This document shows, piece by piece, positions 31,227-54,205 of a stretch of 64,000 bases of DNA. Below the pieces are notes generated by a model. That model did no database searches and had not been told where the DNA came from. It was given only the letters and a program-made list of their open reading frames with translations. Both the position numbers and the translations under genes were made by a program. Numbering within the stretch: position 1 is the first letter of the stretch; every line of letters begins with the position of its first letter. The stretch comes from Xanthomonas phaseoli pv. phaseoli (GTDB lineage Bacteria; Pseudomonadota; Gammaproteobacteria; Xanthomonadales; Xanthomonadaceae): assembly GCA_022749655.1 (NCBI GenBank), contig CP094243.1, positions 1,736,001 to 1,800,000 on the forward strand, read 5' to 3'.

Positions 31227-31380
31227 GTCATCATTGTTGCATCGCGTGCCGCTCCGGCGCGCGTTTTTGCGTTATGCGGCAATGCAGCGTGAGCGCGGGC
31301 GGCGAGGGTGAAACCATGTGCCATTCGCCAGCGTACGTATGCACGCCGGCCCGGTCCCACTCACTCAAGCAGGCATTCCG

Positions 31381-33195
31381 ATGGCTTCAACACTTCGCCC
31401 GATCCGCTCCCTGATGGCTATGGCCATCGCTATCGCGGCCGCCCCGGCCATGGCCGAGTCGGCCTTCGACCAGACCGTGTTCTTCGGCGACAGCCTCACC
31501 GACAGCGGTTATTACAACCCGCTGCTGCCGGCCGCTTCGCGCGCGGTCACCGGCAAGTTCACCACCAACCCGGGTTGGGTGTGGGCCGAATATGTCGGCG
31601 ACCATTTCGGCACCAATGCCGCGCCCAACGGCAACGGCCAGACCGGCGACAACTACGCTGCCGGCGGTGCGCGCATCCAGGCCAGCTCGGTCAGCGCACT
31701 CGGCGCTGCACCGTCGGTAACCAGCCAGATCAACACCTACCTCACCGCCAATGGCGGCCGCGCCAACCCCAATGCGCTGTACACCGTGTGGGGCGGCGCC
31801 AACGACCTGCTCGCCGCGTCGCTCGCCCCGGCACAGGCGCAGGCCATCATCGGCAGCGCGGTGACCGCCCAGGTCGGTGCCGTGGCCACCTTGCAGAATG
31901 CCGGCGCGCGTTACGTCATGGTGCCGACCATTCCGGACGTCGGCCTCACCCCGCGCTTCCGCGCCGGCGGCGCCGTGGGAATGGCGCAAGGCACCGCTGC
32001 GGCTACCGCCTACAACACCGCCTTGTTCAATGGCCTGCAGTCCGCCGGCCTGCGCGTGATTCCGGTCGACACCTTCCACATGCTGCAGGAAATCGTCGCC
32101 AACCCGGGCACCTATGGCTTCAGCAATGTCACCAGCACCGCCTGCAACCCGGCCGTGCCGCTGCCTGCCTGTAACCCGACCAGCCTGGTCGCCGCCAATG
32201 CGCAGAACACCTATGTGTTCGCCGATGGCATTCACCCGACCACGGCGGTGCACCAGATCCTGGGCGAATACGCCATCTCGTTGCTGGAAGCGCCGCGTCT
32301 GCAGCAGGTGCTGACGCATTCGGCGCAGGCTGGCGGCCGCGCGCGCGCCGACCAGGTGGCCTGGCATCTGGACGGCAAGCCCGACGCCGATGGCATGCGT
32401 TGGTGGGGCAGCGTGCGTGGCGACATGCAGCGCTACGACCACGCCGACCTGTACGACGGCATGGCCCCGGCCGGCTTGTTCGGCGTGGATTGGACTGCAG
32501 GCGACCTGGTGTTCGGTGGCTTTGCCGGTTTCGGCCGCATGGACGCCGACTTCGGCAACCGCAACGGCAGCTTCAAGCAGGACGACACCACGCTGGGCGG
32601 CTTCTTCGGCTGGTATACCGGCCCGGTGTGGGTCAATGCCCAGGTCAGCTATAGCTGGCTGAGCTACGACGTGGACCGCGAAGTCCAGCTTGGGCCAGCG
32701 ACCCGCGTGCACAGCGGCTCCCCGACGGCAGCAACCTTACCGCCGCCCTCAACGCCGGGTATTCGCTGGGCGAAGGCAACCTCAAGTACGGCCCGGTGGC
32801 CGGCCTGACCTGGCAGAAGATCAAGCTCGACGGCTATACGGAAAGCAACGACAGCGCCACCGCGCTGGGCTACGCCAACCAGCATCGATTCGCTGGTCGG
32901 CCGCGTCGGCTTCCAGGTGCGTCTGGACGGTGCCATGGTCAAGCCGTACCTGCAGGCAACCTACGACCACGAGTTCAAGGACGGCGGCGAAGCCAGCGCC
33001 TGGCTGCAGTCGATGCCCGAAGTGGGCATGTACACCGTCCCGGGGCAGAACTTCGATCGCAATTACGCCACCGTCGTGCTGGGTGCCCGTACCGGGCTGT
33101 GGGGCCTGCAGAGCAACATCGGCCTGAGCACCACCACGGCCCAGCGCAGCGCCCGCGACGCCACCTTGTTCGTGAACTTCAGCGGCAACTTCTGA
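31381..33195 (+). CDS. GDSL-family autotransporter esterase/lipase, two frame breaks
   Basis: Type V secreted esterase: an N-terminal SGNH/GDSL hydrolase passenger followed by an outer-membrane beta-barrel. ATG 31381 gives a signal peptide cleaved near APAMAES. Catalytic blocks are FFGDSLTDSG (Ser), the Gly block, GGANDLL (Asn) and FADGIHPT (Asp-His). The barrel starts around residue 340. At CCCC 32720-32723 the frame changes (one C missing), and near 32882-32886 it changes again (two bases missing, around NQ-SIDSLVGRVGF). The last strand ends FVNFSGNF, with terminal Phe. About 605 aa when joined, normal for EstA-type autotransporters. Confidence 0.9.
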
Positions 33196-33313: not shown

Positions 33314-33387
33314 GCGGGCGTAGCTCAATGGTAGAGCTGTAGCTTCCCAAGCTACTGACGTGGGTTCGATTCCCATCGCCCGCTCCA
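33314..33387 (+). tRNA. tRNA-Gly (anticodon CCC)
   Basis: 74 bases fold as a standard cloverleaf: acceptor GCGGGCG paired with CGCCCGC, D-arm GCTC/GAGC, anticodon stem GTAGC/GCTAC with loop TTCCCAA giving anticodon CCC, T-arm GTGGG/CCCAT with loop TTCGATT, discriminator T and encoded CCA. Its 3' end is the attachment site of the island that follows. Confidence 0.95.
33370..33387 (+). repeat. attL: left 18-bp core at tRNA-Gly 3' end
   Basis: TTCCCATCGCCCGCTCCA, the end of the T-loop plus the acceptor 3' strand. An identical copy in the same orientation lies at 42756-42773. This is the classic signature of tyrosine-recombinase integration into a tRNA gene that leaves the gene intact. Confidence 0.9.
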
Positions 33388-33467: not shown

Positions 33468-33490
33468 GGTATCGTTTGAGGTATCGTTTT
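33468..33490 (+). repeat. Paired GGTATC repeats, possible integrase arm sites (left)
   Basis: GGTATCGTTT at 33468 and GGTATCGTTTT at 33480, exactly 12 bases apart, 80 bases inside attL and touching the integrase start. A matching pair with the same spacing and orientation lies at 42673-42696 near attR. Function as arm-type integrase sites is inferred. Confidence 0.45.
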
Positions 33491-35160
33491 GCCAAAGCCC
33501 CTCTTGCTGCATCGGCCGTCAGGCCTCTACGTGCGATTCTTGGTTCCTGTTGATTTGCGGGGGCAGGTCGGCTCGCGTTTTTGGTTCGTCCTCTCCATCT
33601 TCGCCCCGGCGATACTGCGCGTCTGGTGTCTGCCTACATGGGGATGGCACTATCGAACGCGTTCCAAGCGTTGAGGCAGGGGAAGCCGGTGGATCTGGAC
33701 GAAGTGCTGCGGCGCATCCGAGAGCAAGGACTGCGCGAACTCACATTGACCGATGTGATGCTGCCTAATGGCACGCGTCTGGGCAAGGCCCAGATCGACA
33801 CGCCCGAGGACGCAGCGCTGTTTGCTGAGTTGTTGCGTGAGCCTGCCTCCGAGCTTGCCGCACCTGCCAAGCCAAGCGGGTGGCGCACCGGGAAGGCCAA
33901 GGCGTCTGGCCCGCTGCTGTCCAAAGCGATTGCGGATCACTTGGGGGACTTGGGTCGCGCGAAGCTCCACAGCAAGACAGTGCTTGAAAGCCGCCACTCA
34001 TTGCGTTTGTTTGCTGGTGCGGTGGGGCAAGACTTGGCAGTGTCCGAATTGACGGCAGACCATGTGCGGGCATTTTTCGATGTCGTGCGGTGGTGGCCGT
34101 CGAATGCGACCAAGCGAGCGCCCTACAAGGACCTTGCGGTCATGGACGTGGTCGCCCTTGCCCAAGCCAATCAAGTTCCGGAGCCAGCCGCCTGGACGGT
34201 TGCCAAGCACCGTCAGCGCTTATCGGTGTTCTTGGTGTCGCTGGTGTCGGCAGGGCTTCTGGGAAGCAATCCGTTGGCCGGTATCCGTGCGATTTCGACG
34301 CCTGACGCAGACGACACGGGTGAGCCCTTCACCGATGACCAGTTGAAGGCCATCTTCGATCCGGTGGCTTTTCCTGCGTGGGCCAAGAAGTATCCGCACA
34401 GGTGGTTCGGTCCGATGCTTGGGCTTTACTCAGGGGCTCGTGTTAACGAGATCGCGCAGCTTCGGGTGGAGGACATCGACACGATCGATGGTGTGCCGGG
34501 CTTCTTCGTGCGACAGGGTGGGAAGGGGCAGAGCGTCAAGAACAAGAACAGTCGCCGTTTTGTGCCGTTGGCCAAGCCGGTGATCGATGCCGGTTTTCTT
34601 GTCTACATCGATGAAGTGCGCCAAGCGGGGCACACGCAAATCTTTCCGCATCTACCCAATAGCACCGGACTGGGCTTTGGTCGACAGTTGAGCCGACAGT
34701 TTTCGGTCTACATTAAACGCCAAGGGATCACGGCGAAGGGGCAAGGCTTTCATGGCTTTCGCCACACCGTTGCTTCGCGTTTGGATGAGGCGGGTGTATC
34801 GGCCTCAGCCATTGCGGCAATCACAGGTCATGCGCGGGGGCAGGGCGTGTTAGGGAACCTCTGAACAAAGCCCTGGACCGCGAGCAAATTGGGAATTTCG
34901 GTTGATCGTGGCGATTTCCAGTACTTGAAATCAAGCACTTGCACGAGATGGCAATTGCCCCGGCTCTCAATCGTAAGCTCGCGAAATAGTTGTTCAGAGC
35001 TTCCTTAGAGAAGTTTTATATCGATCGACGGACTTTGCCCGATCGTGTGGCGACGTTGGCACGCTTTATTGTTCCGACGAGGCTTCCTGATTACATTGCA
35101 GGTCAGTTCTATGCTGCTTTTAAAACTTCTAATTCAAGAACTGTGGGAGTTAACAAGTGA
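33489..35160 (+). pseudogene. Tyrosine recombinase (island integrase), split by a MITE
   Basis: Site-specific recombinase. The likely start is TTG 33489 (PKPLLLHRPSGLYVRFLVPV). The frame changes at TTTTT 33578-33582 (one T missing), continuing VRPLHLRPGDTARLV. Core-binding domain about 33.9-34.3 kb. Catalytic domain has Arg in LYSGARVNEIAQLRVEDI and His-x-x-Arg in FHGFRHTVASRL, then ITGHARGQGVL at 34849, where a 151-bp insertion with TTAG duplication interrupts it. Removing the insert and one TTAG restores GVLEKFYIDRRTLPDR, bringing back the nucleophilic Tyr, and the frame then ends at TGA 35158-35160. As it stands the protein stops without Tyr and should be inactive. It overlaps the next gene (GTGA), a natural operon junction. 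Confidence 0.88.
34850..35008. mobile_element. 151-bp IS5-type MITE with TTAG target duplication
   Basis: The element spans 34854-35004. Terminal inverted repeats are GGAACCTCTGAACAA (left) and GGAAGCTCTGAACAA (right, read inward), one mismatch in 15. Flanking TTAG at 34850-34853 and 35005-35008 is the YTAR-type duplication of the IS5 group. There is no coding capacity, so it is a non-autonomous derivative needing a transposase elsewhere. Confidence 0.85.
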
Positions 35161-35720
35161 GCGGTGAAAAAATAAGTCCGACCGATAATGAGAGAGTCAC
35201 GATCCAATCAGTGATAAAAGATTCGGGCGGGGTTCTCATAGTTAGGATAGATGTCTACGACAGGACGGGGCGCGTGGCGTCGAGTCAGCCCGTTGGCAGG
35301 TTTCGCGTCATATCGAAGAGTGGGATCAATCCTTCCGTCTATAAAACTTTTGACTCGGCTACCGAGGCGTGGGGTTGGATGGATGCTATTGACAGAAATG
35401 GAGTCTCAGAAGGGGCAGGCATCAATGAGGATTTTCTGAATTCTGCTTACGAAAGCGAACAGGTCAAGGAAGGTTTTGAAGATAAGAATTTTATCGGCGG
35501 AGAGGTCAATATTCTTAGGCGTCCTTTGGATGATTTGGAGGACGCGGACTATGCGCTAAGTCAATCTCAGTTTAAGAATAAATTTCTACTGTTGATCCCT
35601 GATGAAAATCTCTCTACTCTTCTTGGGTGTGAAATCAAAGAGGCGCTTATGAATATGTTGTCGCCGGAAGGAAATCCAGAGCCTGTTGTGAGTTCCGTCT
35701 TTAGGCGGAAGATGATTTAA
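35157..35720 (+). CDS. Hypothetical island protein
   Basis: 187 aa, acidic, no signal peptide or membrane segment, no recognised family. The GTG start overlaps the integrase stop by GTGA, so it was co-translated with the integrase before the MITE landed. AT-rich codon use differs sharply from the chromosomal genes, consistent with transfer. Small genes coupled to integrases are often directionality or accessory factors, but nothing in this sequence shows a DNA-binding motif. Confidence 0.65.
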   Translation: MSGEKISPTDNERVTIQSVIKDSGGVLIVRIDVYDRTGRVASSQPVGRFRVISKSGINPSVYKTFDSATEAWGWMDAIDRNGVSEGAGINEDFLNSAYESEQVKEGFEDKNFIGGEVNILRRPLDDLEDADYALSQSQFKNKFLLLIPDENLSTLLGCEIKEALMNMLSPEGNPEPVVSSVFRRKMI

Positions 35721-36703: not shown

Positions 36704-38032
36704 GGGCGTGTCCTAGATTTTGTGTAACCGGGCCACAGGCAGGAGACTGCCACCTAACCCGGAGACACCATGAGCCCACGCACACATGAGGTACCCGACG
36801 AGCTGCTTAGCAGCCTGTTGGTCAACTACACCAAACCCGAGGATCTGATCGGCGAGAACGGCCTGCTCAAGCAGCTGACCAAGCGGTTGGTGGAGCGGGC
36901 GCTGGACGCGGAGATGACCGAACACCTCGGTCATGACAAGCATGAGCCGGTCGCCAACGCGGCCGGCAACACGCGCAACGGACGCAGCCGCAAGACGCTC
37001 AAGGGCGAGTTCGGCGAGCTGCCGATCGAGATTCCGCGTGATCGCCACGGCAGCTTCGCGCCACAGCTGATCCCCAAGCACCAGACCCGCTGGGCCGGCT
37101 TCGATGACAAGATCTTGTCGTTGTACGCGCGCGGCATGACCGTGCGCGAGATCCAGTCGCACCTGGAGGAGATGTACGGCACCGAGGTGTCGCCGAGTCT
37201 GATTTCCTCAGTCACCGATGCGGTCGTCGAGGAGGTCAAGGCGTGGCAGGCGCGGCCACTGGATCCGGTCTATCCGATCGTCTATCTGGACTGCATCCAC
37301 GTCAAAGTGCGCGAGGGCGCGGTGCGGGTCAAGGCGGTGTACCTGGCCATCGGCATCACCATGGGCGGCGAGAAGGAAGTGCTGGGCCTATGGCTGGCGC
37401 AGGCCGAGGGTGCCAAGTTTTGGCTGCAAGTCGTGACGGAGCTACGCAACCGCGGGGTGCAGGACATCTTCATTGCCTGCGTCGATGGCCTGAAGGGGTT
37501 TCCCGAGGCGATCGAGGCGGTGTTCCCGCAGACCACCGTGCAGCTGTGCATCGTGCACATGGTGCGGCACAGCCTGAACTACGTCTCGTGGAAACGCCGC
37601 GCCGAGGTTGCCGCCGATCTCAAGCGCATTTACGCCTGCGCCACCGTCGAGGAGGCCGAGCAGGCACTGACCGAGTTCGAGGCCAAGTGGGACGCCCAGT
37701 ACCCGCCCATCAGCCAGTCATGGCGGCGCAATTGGTCACGACTGATCCCGTTCTTCGACTACCCACCGGAGATCCGCAAGGTGATCTATACGACCAACGC
37801 CATCGAGTCGGTCAACATGAGCCTGCGCAAGCTGACCAAGAACCGCGGCGCGTTCCCCAGCGACGAAGCCTTGATGAAACTGTTCTACCTGGCTCTGCGC
37901 AACATCACCAAGAAATGGACGCTGCCGATCCGCGACTGGAAGGCTGCGCTGAACCGCTTTACGATCCAGTTCGAGGGGCGACTTCCTCAGCGGTAACCCA
38001 AACCACGGTTACACAAAATTCTGCACACGCTC
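36704..38032 (+). mobile_element. IS256 family insertion sequence
   Basis: 1,329 bp. Terminal inverted repeats read GGGCGTGTCCTAGATTTTGT (left) and GAGCGTGTGCAGAATTTTGT (right, read inward), both continuing GTAACC. Flanks GCGAGACC and TGGTCATC do not match, so there is no intact 8-bp duplication; the adjacent IS3 copy is truncated at the left junction, pointing to an adjacent deletion. Confidence 0.9.
36770..37996 (+). CDS. IS256 family (mutator-type) transposase
   Basis: 408 aa, full length. DDE transposase of the mutator superfamily. Acidic residues appear in IVYLDCIHVKVREG and ACVDGLKGFPEAIEAVFPQT, and the family block PFFDYPPEIRKVIYTTNAIE continues SVNMSLRK near the C-terminus. No frame damage, so it may still be active. 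Confidence 0.96.
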   Translation: MSPRTHEVPDELLSSLLVNYTKPEDLIGENGLLKQLTKRLVERALDAEMTEHLGHDKHEPVANAAGNTRNGRSRKTLKGEFGELPIEIPRDRHGSFAPQLIPKHQTRWAGFDDKILSLYARGMTVREIQSHLEEMYGTEVSPSLISSVTDAVVEEVKAWQARPLDPVYPIVYLDCIHVKVREGAVRVKAVYLAIGITMGGEKEVLGLWLAQAEGAKFWLQVVTELRNRGVQDIFIACVDGLKGFPEAIEAVFPQTTVQLCIVHMVRHSLNYVSWKRRAEVAADLKRIYACATVEEAEQALTEFEAKWDAQYPPISQSWRRNWSRLIPFFDYPPEIRKVIYTTNAIESVNMSLRKLTKNRGAFPSDEALMKLFYLALRNITKKWTLPIRDWKAALNRFTIQFEGRLPQR

Positions 38033-38225: not shown

Positions 38226-39123
38226 TCAAGTGCTTAACCGATATGCGGCCTCACATGCCGTGAGGCTTATATTTTTGCGGACAGGTAGCCCATGTTCCTG
38301 CCTGATGGAGTTTTCGCTCGGTTGCCTGGTCTTTCGATATTCGTATTTTCCGACGCCGACGGCCCTGAGTTCCTCCTTTTCCGGCTTCGGATGTTTCGTC
38401 GTAGCGATCTCCACCCTTGTAGGCTCTCGACGTGCCCGCCAATAGATGCTGAGCATGGATAAGCTCGTGTGCAAGAACTACAAACGACTCCTCGGGATCC
38501 GATCCAAGACGAAGAGGGGAGCCGTTTGAATTCAGTTCGATATGACTCTGCGGGCTCCATTCTATAATGGCATTGCATCCCTTTCCTTTTCTTGCTCGTT
38601 CCTTGGCGAGCTCTAGGTTATCGGCGAAAGTCTCTGGATCATATTTTTCAACTTCGCTCGCGCTAAGTACGGCTCTGGTATTGGGCTGCGCTTCAGCGCC
38701 GATCTCCGCTATGGTCACTTTTCGATTCTTGCGAGCGCTGATAGCGCTCAAGCCTTGAAGAAGAGCGCTGCCTGAGCTGCCGGCCGCAATCTTCTCAAGC
38801 GCTGATTCAACTTGGTTCTTGTATGGCTCTTCTCGAGCGCTTGTCTGAGTGGAAATATAGATTCCTGGAAAGTTCGTTGACTGATTGGCATGTGAGTATG
38901 TGTCGTCGAAGTGTCTGTAGGAGTTGCACTTGAATGGTAACGGTGAGGAGGCTGACATGTCGCCGGCATGTGAAATCCTGTCATCAATGGCGAATGCATG
39001 TTCCATTTCGGGCTCTGTGGATTGAGTTGTCGCAGAGCAGTTCAACCTCCGCGACGCGGTTGAATTAATCAGATTTATATTCAAAGCAGCGATATGTGTG
39101 CCTCGGAACTTTCTGGCATCCAA
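38226..39123 (-). CDS. xopG: XopG-like type III effector (zinc metalloprotease, HELIH), frameshift at 38377-38380
   Basis: Predicted effector of the XopG/HopH1 family, proteins with a clostridial-neurotoxin-like HExxH zinc site. The Ser/Asn/Thr-rich N-terminus (STASRRLNCSATTQSTEPEM) suits a type III signal. The central part has VLSASEVEKYDPETFADNLE and the metalloprotease site VVLAHELIHAQHLLAG with downstream YDETSEAGK. After that the frame changes at AAAA (plus-strand TTTT 38377-38380): removing one A joins EAGK to EELRAVGVGKYEYRKTRQPSE and the end AAYRLST at 38226. As written the C-terminus is scrambled. The start could also be the internal ATG at 39006. AT-rich, inside the island. No plant-inducible-promoter box was found upstream. 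Name by remembered family features, not a search. Confidence 0.75.
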
Positions 39124-41431: not shown

Positions 41432-42286
41432 TCAAGACCCTCGTTGCGCGTAGCGCCGTTCAAACTCTACAGGGGACAGGTCACCAGTTGAACCGTGGCG
41501 GCGGTTGGGGTTGTAGAACATCTCGATGTAGTCGAATACCTCGGCGCGTGCGGCGTCCTTGGTGGGATAGATTCGTCGCCTGATCCGCTCGCGTTTGAGC
41601 AGGCCGAAGAAGCTCTCCACGGGTGCGTTGTCGTGGCAGTTGCCACGCCGACTCATGCTGCACACCAAGCCATGGGACGCCAGGAAACTCTGCCAGTCAT
41701 CGCTGGTGTAGACCGACCCTTGGTCTGAGTGAACCAAGCAACCAGCATTGGGTTTGCGCCGCCACACCGCAGACAACAAGGCCTGCACGACCAACTCGGT
41801 GTCGGCCCGATCGCGCATCGCCCAGCCGACGACCTGCCTGGAAAACAGATCGATCACCACAGCCAGGTACATCCAGCCTTCGTGCGTGCGGATGAAGGTG
41901 AAATCGCTCGCCCAGGCCGTGTCCGGCTCGGTCACGTCGAACTGTCGGTCAAGCAGGTTGGCCGCCGCCTTGCACTGCATCCCTCCATGGAAGCGCGGTT
42001 TGCGACCATAGCCCACCTGGGCACGCAATCCCTCGGCGCGCATCAATCGATGCACCCGATGGCGACTGCAACGCTCACCCAGATCGCGTAGATCCTTGGC
42101 GATCTTGCGATGCCCATACACACTGCCGCTGGCCAGCCAGTGGTGCTTGATCAGCCCCAGCAGGCGTTCGTCTTCCTTGGCGCGCTCACTGTCCGGCGAC
42201 TTTAGCCACGCGTAGTATCCAGCCCGGTTCACCCGCAACACCCGGCACATCGCACACACCCTGAACTCCCCGCAGTGGGCTTGCAT
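41432..42286 (-). CDS. IS3 family transposase OrfB (integrase catalytic domain)
   Basis: 284 aa. N-terminal HTH_21-like region (CAMCRVLRVNRAGYYAWLK; GSVYGHRKIAKDLRDLGERC). The rve DDE core has D in TAWASDFTFIRT, D in LVHSDQGSVYTS and E in NAPVESFFGLLKRERI. Complete. Normally expressed by -1 frameshifting from OrfA. Confidence 0.93.
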   Translation of the reverse strand: MQAHCGEFRVCAMCRVLRVNRAGYYAWLKSPDSERAKEDERLLGLIKHHWLASGSVYGHRKIAKDLRDLGERCSRHRVHRLMRAEGLRAQVGYGRKPRFHGGMQCKAAANLLDRQFDVTEPDTAWASDFTFIRTHEGWMYLAVVIDLFSRQVVGWAMRDRADTELVVQALLSAVWRRKPNAGCLVHSDQGSVYTSDDWQSFLASHGLVCSMSRRGNCHDNAPVESFFGLLKRERIRRRIYPTKDAARAEVFDYIEMFYNPNRRHGSTGDLSPVEFERRYAQRGS

Positions 42287-42696: not shown

Positions 42697-42755
42697 GGAT
42701 CACCCCACTCCGGGATAAGCTAGGAAAATCAATTGGTTGGCGTGGTAGGATTCTG

Positions 42756-42773
42756 TTCCCATCGCCCGCTCCA
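42756..42773 (+). repeat. attR: right 18-bp core
   Basis: TTCCCATCGCCCGCTCCA, identical to the last 18 bases of tRNA-Gly at 33370-33387. Preceding bases differ from the tRNA, so this is only the crossover core and not a second tRNA gene. Confidence 0.9.
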
Positions 42774-43307
42774 TATTCGGCGCGTCTTTTGCCAGAGCGC
42801 ATCGCTCCGCAGTTCACTTTCCTCGATTGCATGCAGCCGAGCATCGGTTGATCGGGCGCTGTGCGATCGCGCATCACGCTGAGCCGCAGCGCATTGAGAT
42901 CCATCATCGCGCGTTCGGTATTGGCGGCGCCCCGCGCGATACATGACGCATCGTGCTCAGCGAGCGGTGCAATGTGTGCTGAAGAAATCTACATCTAGCA
43001 CCAGTCTGGCCAAGCTTCGGCTGAATTCCTGCGGCGAATCGCTACAGAGCGCGCTTGTCTACCTGCGCGCCATCCAGCACGTCGCGTGCTCGCTCTGTGC
43101 ATGCAAGACATCTGAAGCATGCGCAAACAACGAGGAAAAAGGATAGGCATCGCGGGTGGATTGGCATACAGTGCCGGCCGCTGCGCTGGCATTGGTTGCC
43201 GGCGCAGATGTCAGGTTCGATGGAATGCTTGACCAGGCCGACCGGCTGCAGTGGCAACAAGGCAAGACACGCGGAGCGCAGTCTGCCGATTAGACGGGAA
43301 GTGGCTG
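42774..43307. other. Non-coding chromosomal stretch right of the island
   Basis: 534 bases without a supported gene; short frames on both strands have no recognised product. Compositionally back to the GC-rich backbone in its first half. Confidence 0.4.
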
Positions 43308-43990
43308 TTGAAGTTGTTGAAACGTTGGGTTTTGTCGGTGCTGGTATTTTTGCTTTACCTGTCAGTGCTGCGGAGCTGGTCGGTCGTGCGACGGTGACCG
43401 ATGGCGACACCATCACCATTGCCCATCAGCGCATCCGCCTGTGGGGAATCGATGCGCCGGAGAGCGCGCAGCAGTGCGGCGCACACGATGGCAGCGCCTG
43501 GCCGTGCGGCCGCCGCGCTGCAGCGGCATTGGATGGCTATCTGCTGGACAAGACCGTGTATTGCCAGCCGAAAGATACCGATCGCTATGGCCGCACAGTG
43601 GCCGAATGCTTCGTGCAGGGGCAGTCCGTCAATGCCTGGATGGTGCGCTCTGGCTGGGCGGTCGCCTATCGTCAACATGCCACCGCGTTCGAGGCGGACG
43701 AGCGCATCGCGCAGCAGCAGCGGCGCAATCTCTGGCAGGGCGCGTTTCAGATGCCGGCAGACTACCGCCGCGACAAGAAGGCGCGGACAGCAACCACACG
43801 CCAGGTTGCAACGTCGGCGCCAGGCAATTGCGCGATCAAGGGCAATATCTCCAGTGACGGCAAAAAGATCTTTCATGTCCCGGGCCAGCGCGATTACGCA
43901 AAGACGCGCATCTCGCCAGCGAAGGGCGAGCGTTTCTTCTGTTCGGTGAATGAAGCGGCTGCTGCCGGGTGGAGACCGGCGCAGCGGTGA
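43308..43990 (+). CDS. Exported SNase-like thermonuclease, frame break in signal peptide
   Basis: Staphylococcal-nuclease-fold protein. The domain starts VGRATVTDGDTITIAHQRIR and shows LWGIDAPE, the catalytic-type Arg segment TDRYGRTVAECFVQGQSVNAWM and WMVRSGWAVAY. The C-terminal extension with two Cys (GNCAIKGNISSDGKKIFHVP; FFCSVNEAAAAGWRPA) resembles the small domain often appended to bacterial SNases. In frame, the region before ELVG lacks a start. If one T is restored in TTTTT 43347-43351, TTG 43308 (ribosome site GGGAAG) gives a textbook signal peptide: KLLKRWVLSVLVFFALPVSA. This strongly suggests a one-base loss there. Confidence 0.85.
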
Positions 43991-52000: not shown

Positions 52001-52828
52001 CTAAGCGGCCATCGCCAACTTCATGGCAGGCGTGATGCCGCCGAGCGCCATATTCGGACGCTCGTGGTTGTACGTCCATAGCCAGCGGGTGGCTTTGTCC
52101 TGCACCTGGTCGATGGTGTCGAACAGGGTTTGGGCGAGCCAGGCGTAGCGGATGGTGCGGTTGTAGCGTTCAACGTAGGCGTTCTGCTGTGGCTTGCCCG
52201 GCTGGATGTGCTCGACCCGGATACCATGCCGCTGCGCCCAGGACAGCAACGCGCCACTGATGTATTCAGGGCCGTTGTCGCAGCGGATCACGGCGGGCTT
52301 GCCGCGCCACTCGATGATCTGCTCCAGCGATCGGATCACACGGGCTGACGGCAGCGACAGATCCACCTCGATCCCCAGCCCCTCGCGATTGAAGTCGTCG
52401 AGCACATTGAACAGCCGGAAGCTGCGGCCGTCGGCCAACTGGTCGTGCATGAAGTCCATCGACCAGACCTGGTTGATAGCCTCCGGCACCGCCAGAGGCT
52501 CGGGCCGCTCACGCACCAGCCGCTTCCTCGGCTTGATCCGCAGGTTCAACTCCAGCTCGCGGTAGATCCGGTAGACCCGCTTGTGATTCCAGCCAAAGCC
52601 CTTCACGTTGCGCAGGTACAGGTAGCACAGGCCAAAGCCCCAGTCGCGATGGGCGGTCGTCAGGCGGACCAGCCAGTCGGCGATCCGGGCGTTCTGCTCG
52701 CTGGCCTTGGCCTGGTAGCGGAAGCAGGTCTCGCTCACCGCGAAGGCCTGGCAGGCGTGGCGGATGTTCGTACGCCCGCTCGTGACTGCCGATTGGGCCA
52801 TCTCGCGTCGCTGAGATGGCCTCACCAT
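52001..52828 (-). CDS. IS3 family transposase OrfB
   Basis: 275 aa from ATG 52828, which overlaps the orfA stop (ATGGTGA). The DDE integrase core has D in [21 protein letters not shown] in [14 protein letters not shown] and E in [16 protein letters not shown]. Full length and undamaged. The open frame continues upstream without a stop into the Rhs fragment by chance, so a spurious Rhs-transposase fusion would be predicted by naive calling. Confidence 0.93.
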
Positions 52829-53088
52829 TTTTTTGCGAGCGCTTCCTTCAGCAGGTCGGTACTGAGCTGCGCCTCGGCGTACATCTTCTTGAGCCGGCGG
52901 TTCTCCTCCTCCAGCTCCTTCATGCGCGCGACCATGGACACGTCCATGCCGCCGAACTTGCTGCGCCACTTGTAGAACGTGGCCGAGCTGATGCCGTGCT
53001 CGCGGCACAGCTCCGGCACGGGCGCACCGGCCTGGGCCTGCTTGAGCACGGCGATGATCTGGCTGTCGGTAAAGCGGGACTTCTTCAT
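52822..53088 (-). CDS. IS3 family transposase OrfA
   Basis: 88-aa HTH protein, identical in form to the copy at 36342-36608, with the A7 slippery run near its end for -1 frameshifting into OrfB. Confidence 0.92.
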
Positions 53089-53156
53089 GGAACCTCCTCG
53101 GGAAAGGGGACGAGAAAATTCCACTTCTGGCGTCTGCTAATGGGCGGGGATTACCC

Positions 53157-54205
53157 CCATATTTGTACGAAAAGGCAAGACTTCGCCCATTCGCATCAGT
53201 CGCTATTGAAACTTTCCCCTCACTGTAGCGAAAGGTTATAAAATCGCCGTCAGGGTAGTCGATTTTCTGCAAGTTGCCAGCTGCATCAAACTCTTCAATG
53301 GTCTGATCGGGAGCGTGGACATGCCAGCTCACCAGCGCCCCGTCCTCCCTAACTTCCTCGAGTACGTAGCGCACGTCGCTTTCTGCATGCCATTCGCCAC
53401 TTCCCACGTCCTTGAACAAATAAGAGTTGCCACTTGGTCTTGTTAGCAGAACTGTTTTTGCGCCCGATGCTAAGTTGGCTCTGATGGACCGCATGTAAGA
53501 ATGCCGCCACTCAATGCCTAGCGGAGAGCCGGCATCAAGCCCGATATTTCCGCTGGTGTAAAAGCGAGCGAATTGGAGCTTGGTTGCGGGTGCAGAGAAA
53601 TCTATATCTTTCTGTAGCTTGGTGCCAGTAAAAAAATTGACCGGATTTCCTGCGGTGCAAGAGCCAGATGTTGGTGCATCACATTCGTTGTTCTTGCCCG
53701 GGTCAACTGGCCGACGAATGCATGTCATTATGTTATTTGGATTGGGATCAAATCCGGCTGGGCATTGCCAATGTTTTGCCAACAATGTAGGGAAATAACC
53801 GCTGCTTGAAGGTCGGCAAGTGGAATTGTCTGTGGTGCAATTATTTGCGCTTGAAAATCCAGCCGCAATGTAAGGGCGAAGTTCTGGTCCCTCCGGCCCT
53901 GTGTAGCTGATAACCACTATTGATGCGGGTTGTCCATTCCATAGTCCGTTGCCTTGTCCTTCACATTGGAGGATTCGGCAGCCAGCGCCATAATTGTCAA
54001 TCTCAGGGTTGAATTCACCGGGTAGCGGTGGGATTTTGCTAACTTCGAAGTCTTGAGCGAGTACAGCAGACGTAGGAAGGCAGAGCGCTGTCATTAAAAC
54101 AAGTTTTGATGCTTGTTGCAGCGCGATTGCCGTGAACCGCTTTTGAGAAATTAACGGTGAATTATTTGACTGGGTGATAAATGAATTACTGCTTCTGGCG
54201 TGCAT
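53157..54205 (-). pseudogene. Rhs-family protein, N-terminal part, truncated by IS3
   Basis: About 350 codons of a secreted Rhs/YD-repeat protein. ATG 54205 opens a long n-region and hydrophobic segment ([17 protein letters not shown]). A Cys-rich section follows, then the DUF6531-type Rhs start ([35 protein letters not shown]) and the first YD-like units ([37 protein letters not shown]), where the IS3 element cuts in. The core shell and the polymorphic C-terminal toxin are missing. The segment is AT-richer than its surroundings, as usual for rhs loci. Probable inactive remnant of a contact-dependent toxin locus. Confidence 0.85.

What the first reader, a model, noticed from the sequence alone, without database searches (positions are those of the whole stretch)
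34850..35008. A 151-bp MITE splits the island integrase just before its catalytic tyrosine
15-bp terminal inverted repeats (one mismatch) and a TTAG target duplication define an IS5-type MITE. Excising it with one TTAG restores ...GVL-EKFYIDRRTLPDR... and an open frame to the natural overlap with the next gene. The insertion removes the nucleophile and should lock the island in place, an elegant domestication event.
Basis: partly seen in the sequence, partly recalled or inferred. Interest (0 to 1): 0.8.

Follow-up and report, generated by a model that had tools for sequence, protein, structure and literature searches.

The report
Transposon fragment interrupting an island integrase
A 151-base non-coding hopping element has landed in, and cut the end off, the enzyme gene that belongs to a small virulence island in a Xanthomonas-like genome; it is a clean but ordinary case of a mobile island decaying.

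Summary
A 151-bp element (34854-35004) with 15-bp inverted ends (one mismatch) lies between two TTAG copies. The genome has five further matches, two of them identical over 151/151 bases. Two related genomes keep the integrase uninterrupted at this point; one of them has a single TTAG there. The insertion ends the integrase three codons past the junction and removes a tyrosine present in 20 of 20 aligned relatives. [quoted passage not shown] is well supported.

"Domestication that locks the island" is only partly supported. The integrase has a second defect, a frame break in its 5' part, which may be real (the gene may have been dead already) or an assembly error. The island carries xopG, and a similar IS-rich xopG locus near tRNA genes is in print. 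The genome has no full IS with exactly the MITE's ends; a resident IS5-family element with 19 full-length copies matches 14 of 15 bases at one end and 11-12 at the other.

Unexpected: the other five copies sit within 35 kb, in and around a type III secretion locus whose SctC was found in this genome alone of 35 searched.

The parts
34850..34853 (.). TTAG target copy, left
34854..35004 (+). 151-bp MITE; inverted ends 34854-34868 and 34990-35004; no protein-coding gene evident
   Evidence: folds better than 198 of 200 shuffles, z -3.06
35005..35008 (.). TTAG target copy, right
33581..34864 (+). Integrase, main piece; 427-aa open frame, PF00589, truncated by a stop inside the MITE; true start not settled
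33480..33600 (+). Integrase 5' part, in another frame than the main piece when compared with 5 of 5 close relatives; real lesion or assembly error (extent approximate)
35008..35160 (+). Integrase C-terminal piece with the conserved tyrosine, cut off from the main piece
35157..35720 (+). 187-aa open frame overlapping the integrase end; no Pfam or NCBIfam match
33314..33387 (+). tRNA-Gly (CCC), attachment site; its 3' end is the left repeat (33362-33387)
42748..42773 (+). Probable right attachment repeat: 26 nt, 88% alike, last 18 nt identical to the tRNA 3' end; island about 9.4 kb
38251..39123 (-). XopG/HopH-family effector gene (island cargo), described only
36770..37996 (+). IS256-family transposase on the island
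41432..42286 (-). IS3-family transposase on the island

Best explanation
A 151-bp non-autonomous element of an IS5-related MITE family that is widespread in the genus inserted at a TTAG target inside the integrase gene of a small tRNA-Gly xopG island. Shown: the insertion, the TTAG duplication, uninterrupted natural sites in relatives, truncation three codons past the junction, and loss of the fully conserved tyrosine. Inferred: it was moved in trans by an IS5-family transposase; the truncated integrase cannot form the covalent DNA intermediate, so the island cannot excise by its own enzyme; the copy came from the near-identical copies around the type III secretion locus at 544-579 kb. The integrase also carries a 5' frame break, so the MITE is one of perhaps two lesions in a decaying integrase and not a demonstrated domestication.
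For: Five further matches in the genome, two identical over 151/151. 15 of 35 genus genomes have matches. Of 33 loci examined 23 had both ends; 14 of 23 have identical 4-bp flanks and 17 of 23 have YTAR on both sides. The two integrase pieces abut in G006 and G022; G006 has one TTAG there and G022 TTGG. tRNA-Gly (CCC) lies in front of the integrase in 6 of 6 relatives' loci examined. Tyrosine conserved in 20 of 20. Resident IS with 19 full-length copies among 33 matches encodes an IS5-family transposase.
Against: No full IS with exactly the MITE's ends in the genome; the resident IS shares only end sequence, nothing inside, and its right end matches the MITE ends at only 11-12 of 15 bases. Only 2 of 5 complete copies in the genome have a perfect duplication. 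The 5' frame break gives another cause of inactivity. Nucleophile role rests on conservation; no solved structure matched. No test of transposition, excision or integrase activity.
Confidence: 0.85

Rival explanations
1. The integrase was already dead through the 5' frame break; the MITE landed later in a pseudogene and locked nothing.
For: The 5' part is out of frame compared with 5 of 5 close relatives. Damage to this integrase occurs elsewhere: of those 5 relatives G009 is split and G014's match stops at residue 285, G017 runs off its contig, G006 and G022 are intact.
Against: The frame break may be an assembly error: completeness is 90.46 while 33 of the other 34 genomes are at 99-100, and reference frames split more often in the window (3 of 11 and 3 of 13 found) than between the references (1 of 8 and 1 of 14), small counts. 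Small-gap rates differ only modestly: 5.6 and 4.4 per kb against 3.9.
Confidence: 0.35
2. Selected domestication: loss of the integrase was favoured because it fixes the xopG cargo.
For: The insertion removes the tyrosine and the island carries an effector gene.
Against: No population data, no evidence of selection; MITE and IS insertions are abundant here and damage to such integrases is seen in relatives.
Confidence: 0.08
3. The 151-bp segment is normal integrase sequence or an artefact of assembly.
For: None found, beyond the general doubt about this assembly's small gaps.
Against: Relatives are uninterrupted; the segment occurs at other loci with its own target duplications.
Confidence: 0.01

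Closest known systems
IS5-family MITEs of bacteria (family knowledge recalled)
   Same: Short, without a transposase gene, inverted ends, 4-bp YTAR target, many copies, related full elements in the genome
   Different: The resident full IS shares ends only, not interior, and not exactly
xopG locus of Xanthomonas fuscans 4834-R (PMC3826837, passages seen)
   Same: xopG flanked by insertion sequences including a mutator-type transposase, near tRNA genes, proposed as a small pathogenicity island
   Different: The passages seen do not mention a MITE in the integrase; my find for 'MITE' in that paper gave 0 occurrences
tRNA-targeting tyrosine integrases (PF00589)
   Same: Domain match, tRNA-Gly 3' end as target, att-like repeat, conserved tyrosine in relatives
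   Different: This copy is truncated by the MITE and out of frame in its 5' part

Membership tests
IS5-type MITE | Short element with terminal inverted repeats and no transposase gene | tested here: met
   151 bp, 15-bp ends, 14 of 15 alike
IS5-type MITE | YTAR 4-bp target duplication (motif recalled) | tested here: met
   TTAG at this copy; 14 of 23 paired copies with identical flanks, 17 of 23 with YTAR on both sides
IS5-type MITE | Multiple copies | tested here: met
   6 matches in the genome; 15 of 35 genus genomes
IS5-type MITE | Autonomous IS5-family element with matching ends in the same genome | tested here: inconclusive
   Resident IS5-family element: left end 14 of 15, right end 11-12 of 15; an X. 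hortorum IS has the exact left end
IS5-type MITE | Mobilised in trans by that transposase | not testable with these tools
   needs an experiment
Tyrosine integrase of a tRNA island | Catalytic-domain match | tested here: met
   PF00589, E 3.4e-14
Tyrosine integrase of a tRNA island | Nucleophilic tyrosine in the same open frame | tested here: not met
   Cut off by the MITE; present in 20 of 20 relatives. So: a broken member
Tyrosine integrase of a tRNA island | tRNA 3'-end target and a direct repeat at the far end | tested here: met
   26-nt repeat, 88%, last 18 nt identical; no second exact 18-nt copy in the G006 stretch and none in G022's, so not confirmed in relatives

The most novel reading that the evidence does not exclude
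The MITE subfamily entered this lineage as a passenger of a type III secretion island, multiplied there, and spread outward with the help of resident IS5-family transposase, disabling the integrase of a second virulence island (xopG): one acquired island shaping the mobility of another.
Probability: 0.2. Interest if true: 0.45.

Novelty: new member of a known kind. Interest (0 to 1): 0.25.

Why it matters
A clean example of a miniature transposon disabling the recombinase of a virulence island, with natural uninterrupted sites for comparison. The clustering of the other copies at a type III secretion locus suggests a testable route by which such elements travel. It does not change the understanding of islands or MITEs.

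Tried and rejected
Plasmid collection: 1 of 72,556 records matched, about 70% identical, 11 places; no donor found. Solved structures: no match at E up to 0.1, so the tyrosine was assigned by conservation. MITE as internal-deletion product of the resident IS5 element: rejected, only the ends match. Segment as normal integrase sequence: rejected. Paper searches were seen as listings only; one paper, PMC3826837, was seen in passages. I saw no report of this MITE in an island integrase in those, which is a narrow search. Same-species sister strains were not testable: the collection holds one genome per species.

Full report
What is there. The window lies in a genome of 5,333,767 bases in 3 contigs. 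Genus Xanthomonas is my inference: among the hits of an exact-end scan are X. hortorum, X. arboricola and X. dyei, and the island cargo is a XopG-family gene. The species is not identified. At 34850-35008 a 151-bp element stands between two TTAG copies, with 15-bp inverted ends alike at 14 of 15 bases. Folded as RNA it does better than 198 of 200 shuffles (z -3.06).

It is a repeated mobile element. The genome holds six matches: five complete copies and one partial. Two copies are identical to the window's over 151 bases; the other two complete ones match at 141 and 137 of 151. In the genus 15 of 35 genomes (own included) have matches; outside the own genome these are 66-83% identical, apart from short end matches of 22-24 bases at 96-100%. 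Of 33 loci examined (6 own, 27, whose loci were capped at 30), 23 had both ends paired; 14 of 23 have identical 4-bp flanks and 17 of 23 have YTAR on both sides. In the own genome 2 of 5 complete copies have a perfect duplication, so the others were rearranged or have decayed.

Mobiliser. With up to one mismatch the end pattern occurs 36 times in the genome against 0 for the backward control; the 9 exact matches all lie at MITE copies. Many of the rest are left ends of an IS of about 1,162 bp (21 loci looked at), which has 33 matches in the genome, 19 of them full length. Its 327-aa transposase is IS5 family (NF033581, E 1.3e-107). Its left end matches each MITE end at 14 of 15 bases, its right end at 11 and 12 of 15, and no interior match was found. 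An X. hortorum IS has the exact left end. Mobilisation in trans by an IS5-type transposase is therefore likely, not shown, and the MITE is not a simple deletion product of the resident IS.

The interrupted gene. The open frame 33581-34864 matches PF00589 (E 3.4e-14) and stops three codons past the junction. The piece 35008-35160 carries EKFYIDRRTLPDR and overlaps the next open frame's start. Searched apart, the two pieces match directly adjacent stretches of intact integrases in G006 (485 aa) and G022 (495 aa). G006 has a single TTAG at the site and G022 has TTGG. tRNA-Gly (CCC) precedes the integrase in 6 of 6 relatives' loci examined. The tyrosine just after the junction is present in 20 of 20 aligned relatives (21 loci offered, one gave no frame under the script's filter; many rows are close kin). 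Its role as nucleophile rests on that conservation and on its place after the HxxR and GH motifs (motifs recalled); no solved structure matched.

A second lesion. The integrase's 5' part is in another frame than the rest when compared with 5 of 5 close relatives: G006, G009, G014, G017, G022. It may be real, and then the MITE may have entered a dead gene. It may be an assembly error: completeness is 90.46, while 33 of the other 34 genomes are at 99-100 and one at 81; reference frames split more often in the window (3 of 11 and 3 of 13 found) than between the two references (1 of 8 and 1 of 14); small gaps run at 5.6 and 4.4 per kb against 3.9. These differences are modest. The gene just upstream (31.3-33.2 kb) also looks frame-broken.

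The island. It begins at the 3' end of tRNA-Gly (33314-33387) and probably ends at a 26-nt repeat at 42748-42773, 88% alike with the last 18 nt identical, about 9.4 kb. Against that boundary: G+C stays low (0.60-0.64) for the 3 kb beyond it, compared with 0.67 before the tRNA, and no second exact 18-nt copy was found in the G006 stretch, nor any exact copy in G022's. The island holds a 187-aa open frame without a Pfam or NCBIfam match, an IS3-like orfA (label recalled; PF01527), an IS256 transposase, a XopG-family gene, a RadC-like gene and an IS3 transposase. G006 shares parts of the interior and G022 little, so the site takes varying cargo. A xopG locus with many ISs near tRNA genes was described in X. 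fuscans 4834-R (PMC3826837, passages), so the island type is not new. Of the 5 close relatives, G006 and G022 have intact integrases, G009 is split, G014's match stops early and G017 runs off its contig.

An unexpected distribution. The other five matches lie within 35 kb, at 544-579 kb of contig 1. That stretch encodes type III secretion proteins: SctC, SctJ and SctR above their NCBIfam cut-offs, an SctN (above the broader FliI/YscN cut-off only), parts of SctV and SctU below cut-off, and a chaperone above the SycD/LcrH cut-off whose best match, SicA, is below its own. 'SPI-1-like' rests on the SicA name and on recall. The SctC protein was found in 1 of 35 genomes at E <= 1e-40, this one. The simplest reading is that this subfamily multiplied at that locus and one copy reached the integrase; the direction is inferred. 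SPI-1-like systems in Xanthomonas are in print (titles and term counts; a reference seen).

How it works. Shown: insertion, duplication, truncation, loss of the conserved tyrosine. Inferred: transposition in trans by an IS5-type enzyme; an integrase unable to cut and rejoin DNA; an island unable to excise by its own enzyme. Not shown: that the island was mobile before, that the MITE came before the 5' break, that no other integrase can act on the att sites, or that selection favoured it.

Verdict. A neat but ordinary case of mobile-element decay; interest 0.25.

Noticed in passing
G000 contig 1, 544-579 kb (loci L124, L125): Five of the genome's six MITE matches lie in or beside a type III secretion locus whose SctC was found in only this one of 35 genus genomes.
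   Followed up: partly
window 31318-33195: The gene upstream of the tRNA appears split over frames, while relatives have one open frame to the same C-terminus.
   Followed up: partly
plasmid record CP077786.1 (Xanthomonas perforans): 11 places match the MITE family at about 70% identity for the best: the family also rides on a plasmid.
   Followed up: no
window 52001-54205: A 734-aa open frame begins like an RHS-type protein and continues into IS3-like transposase sequence, as if an IS had inserted (read from the ORF listing; labels recalled).
   Followed up: no
window 43055-43990: A nuclease-like (SNase domain) gene lies just beyond the probable right end of the island.
   Followed up: no
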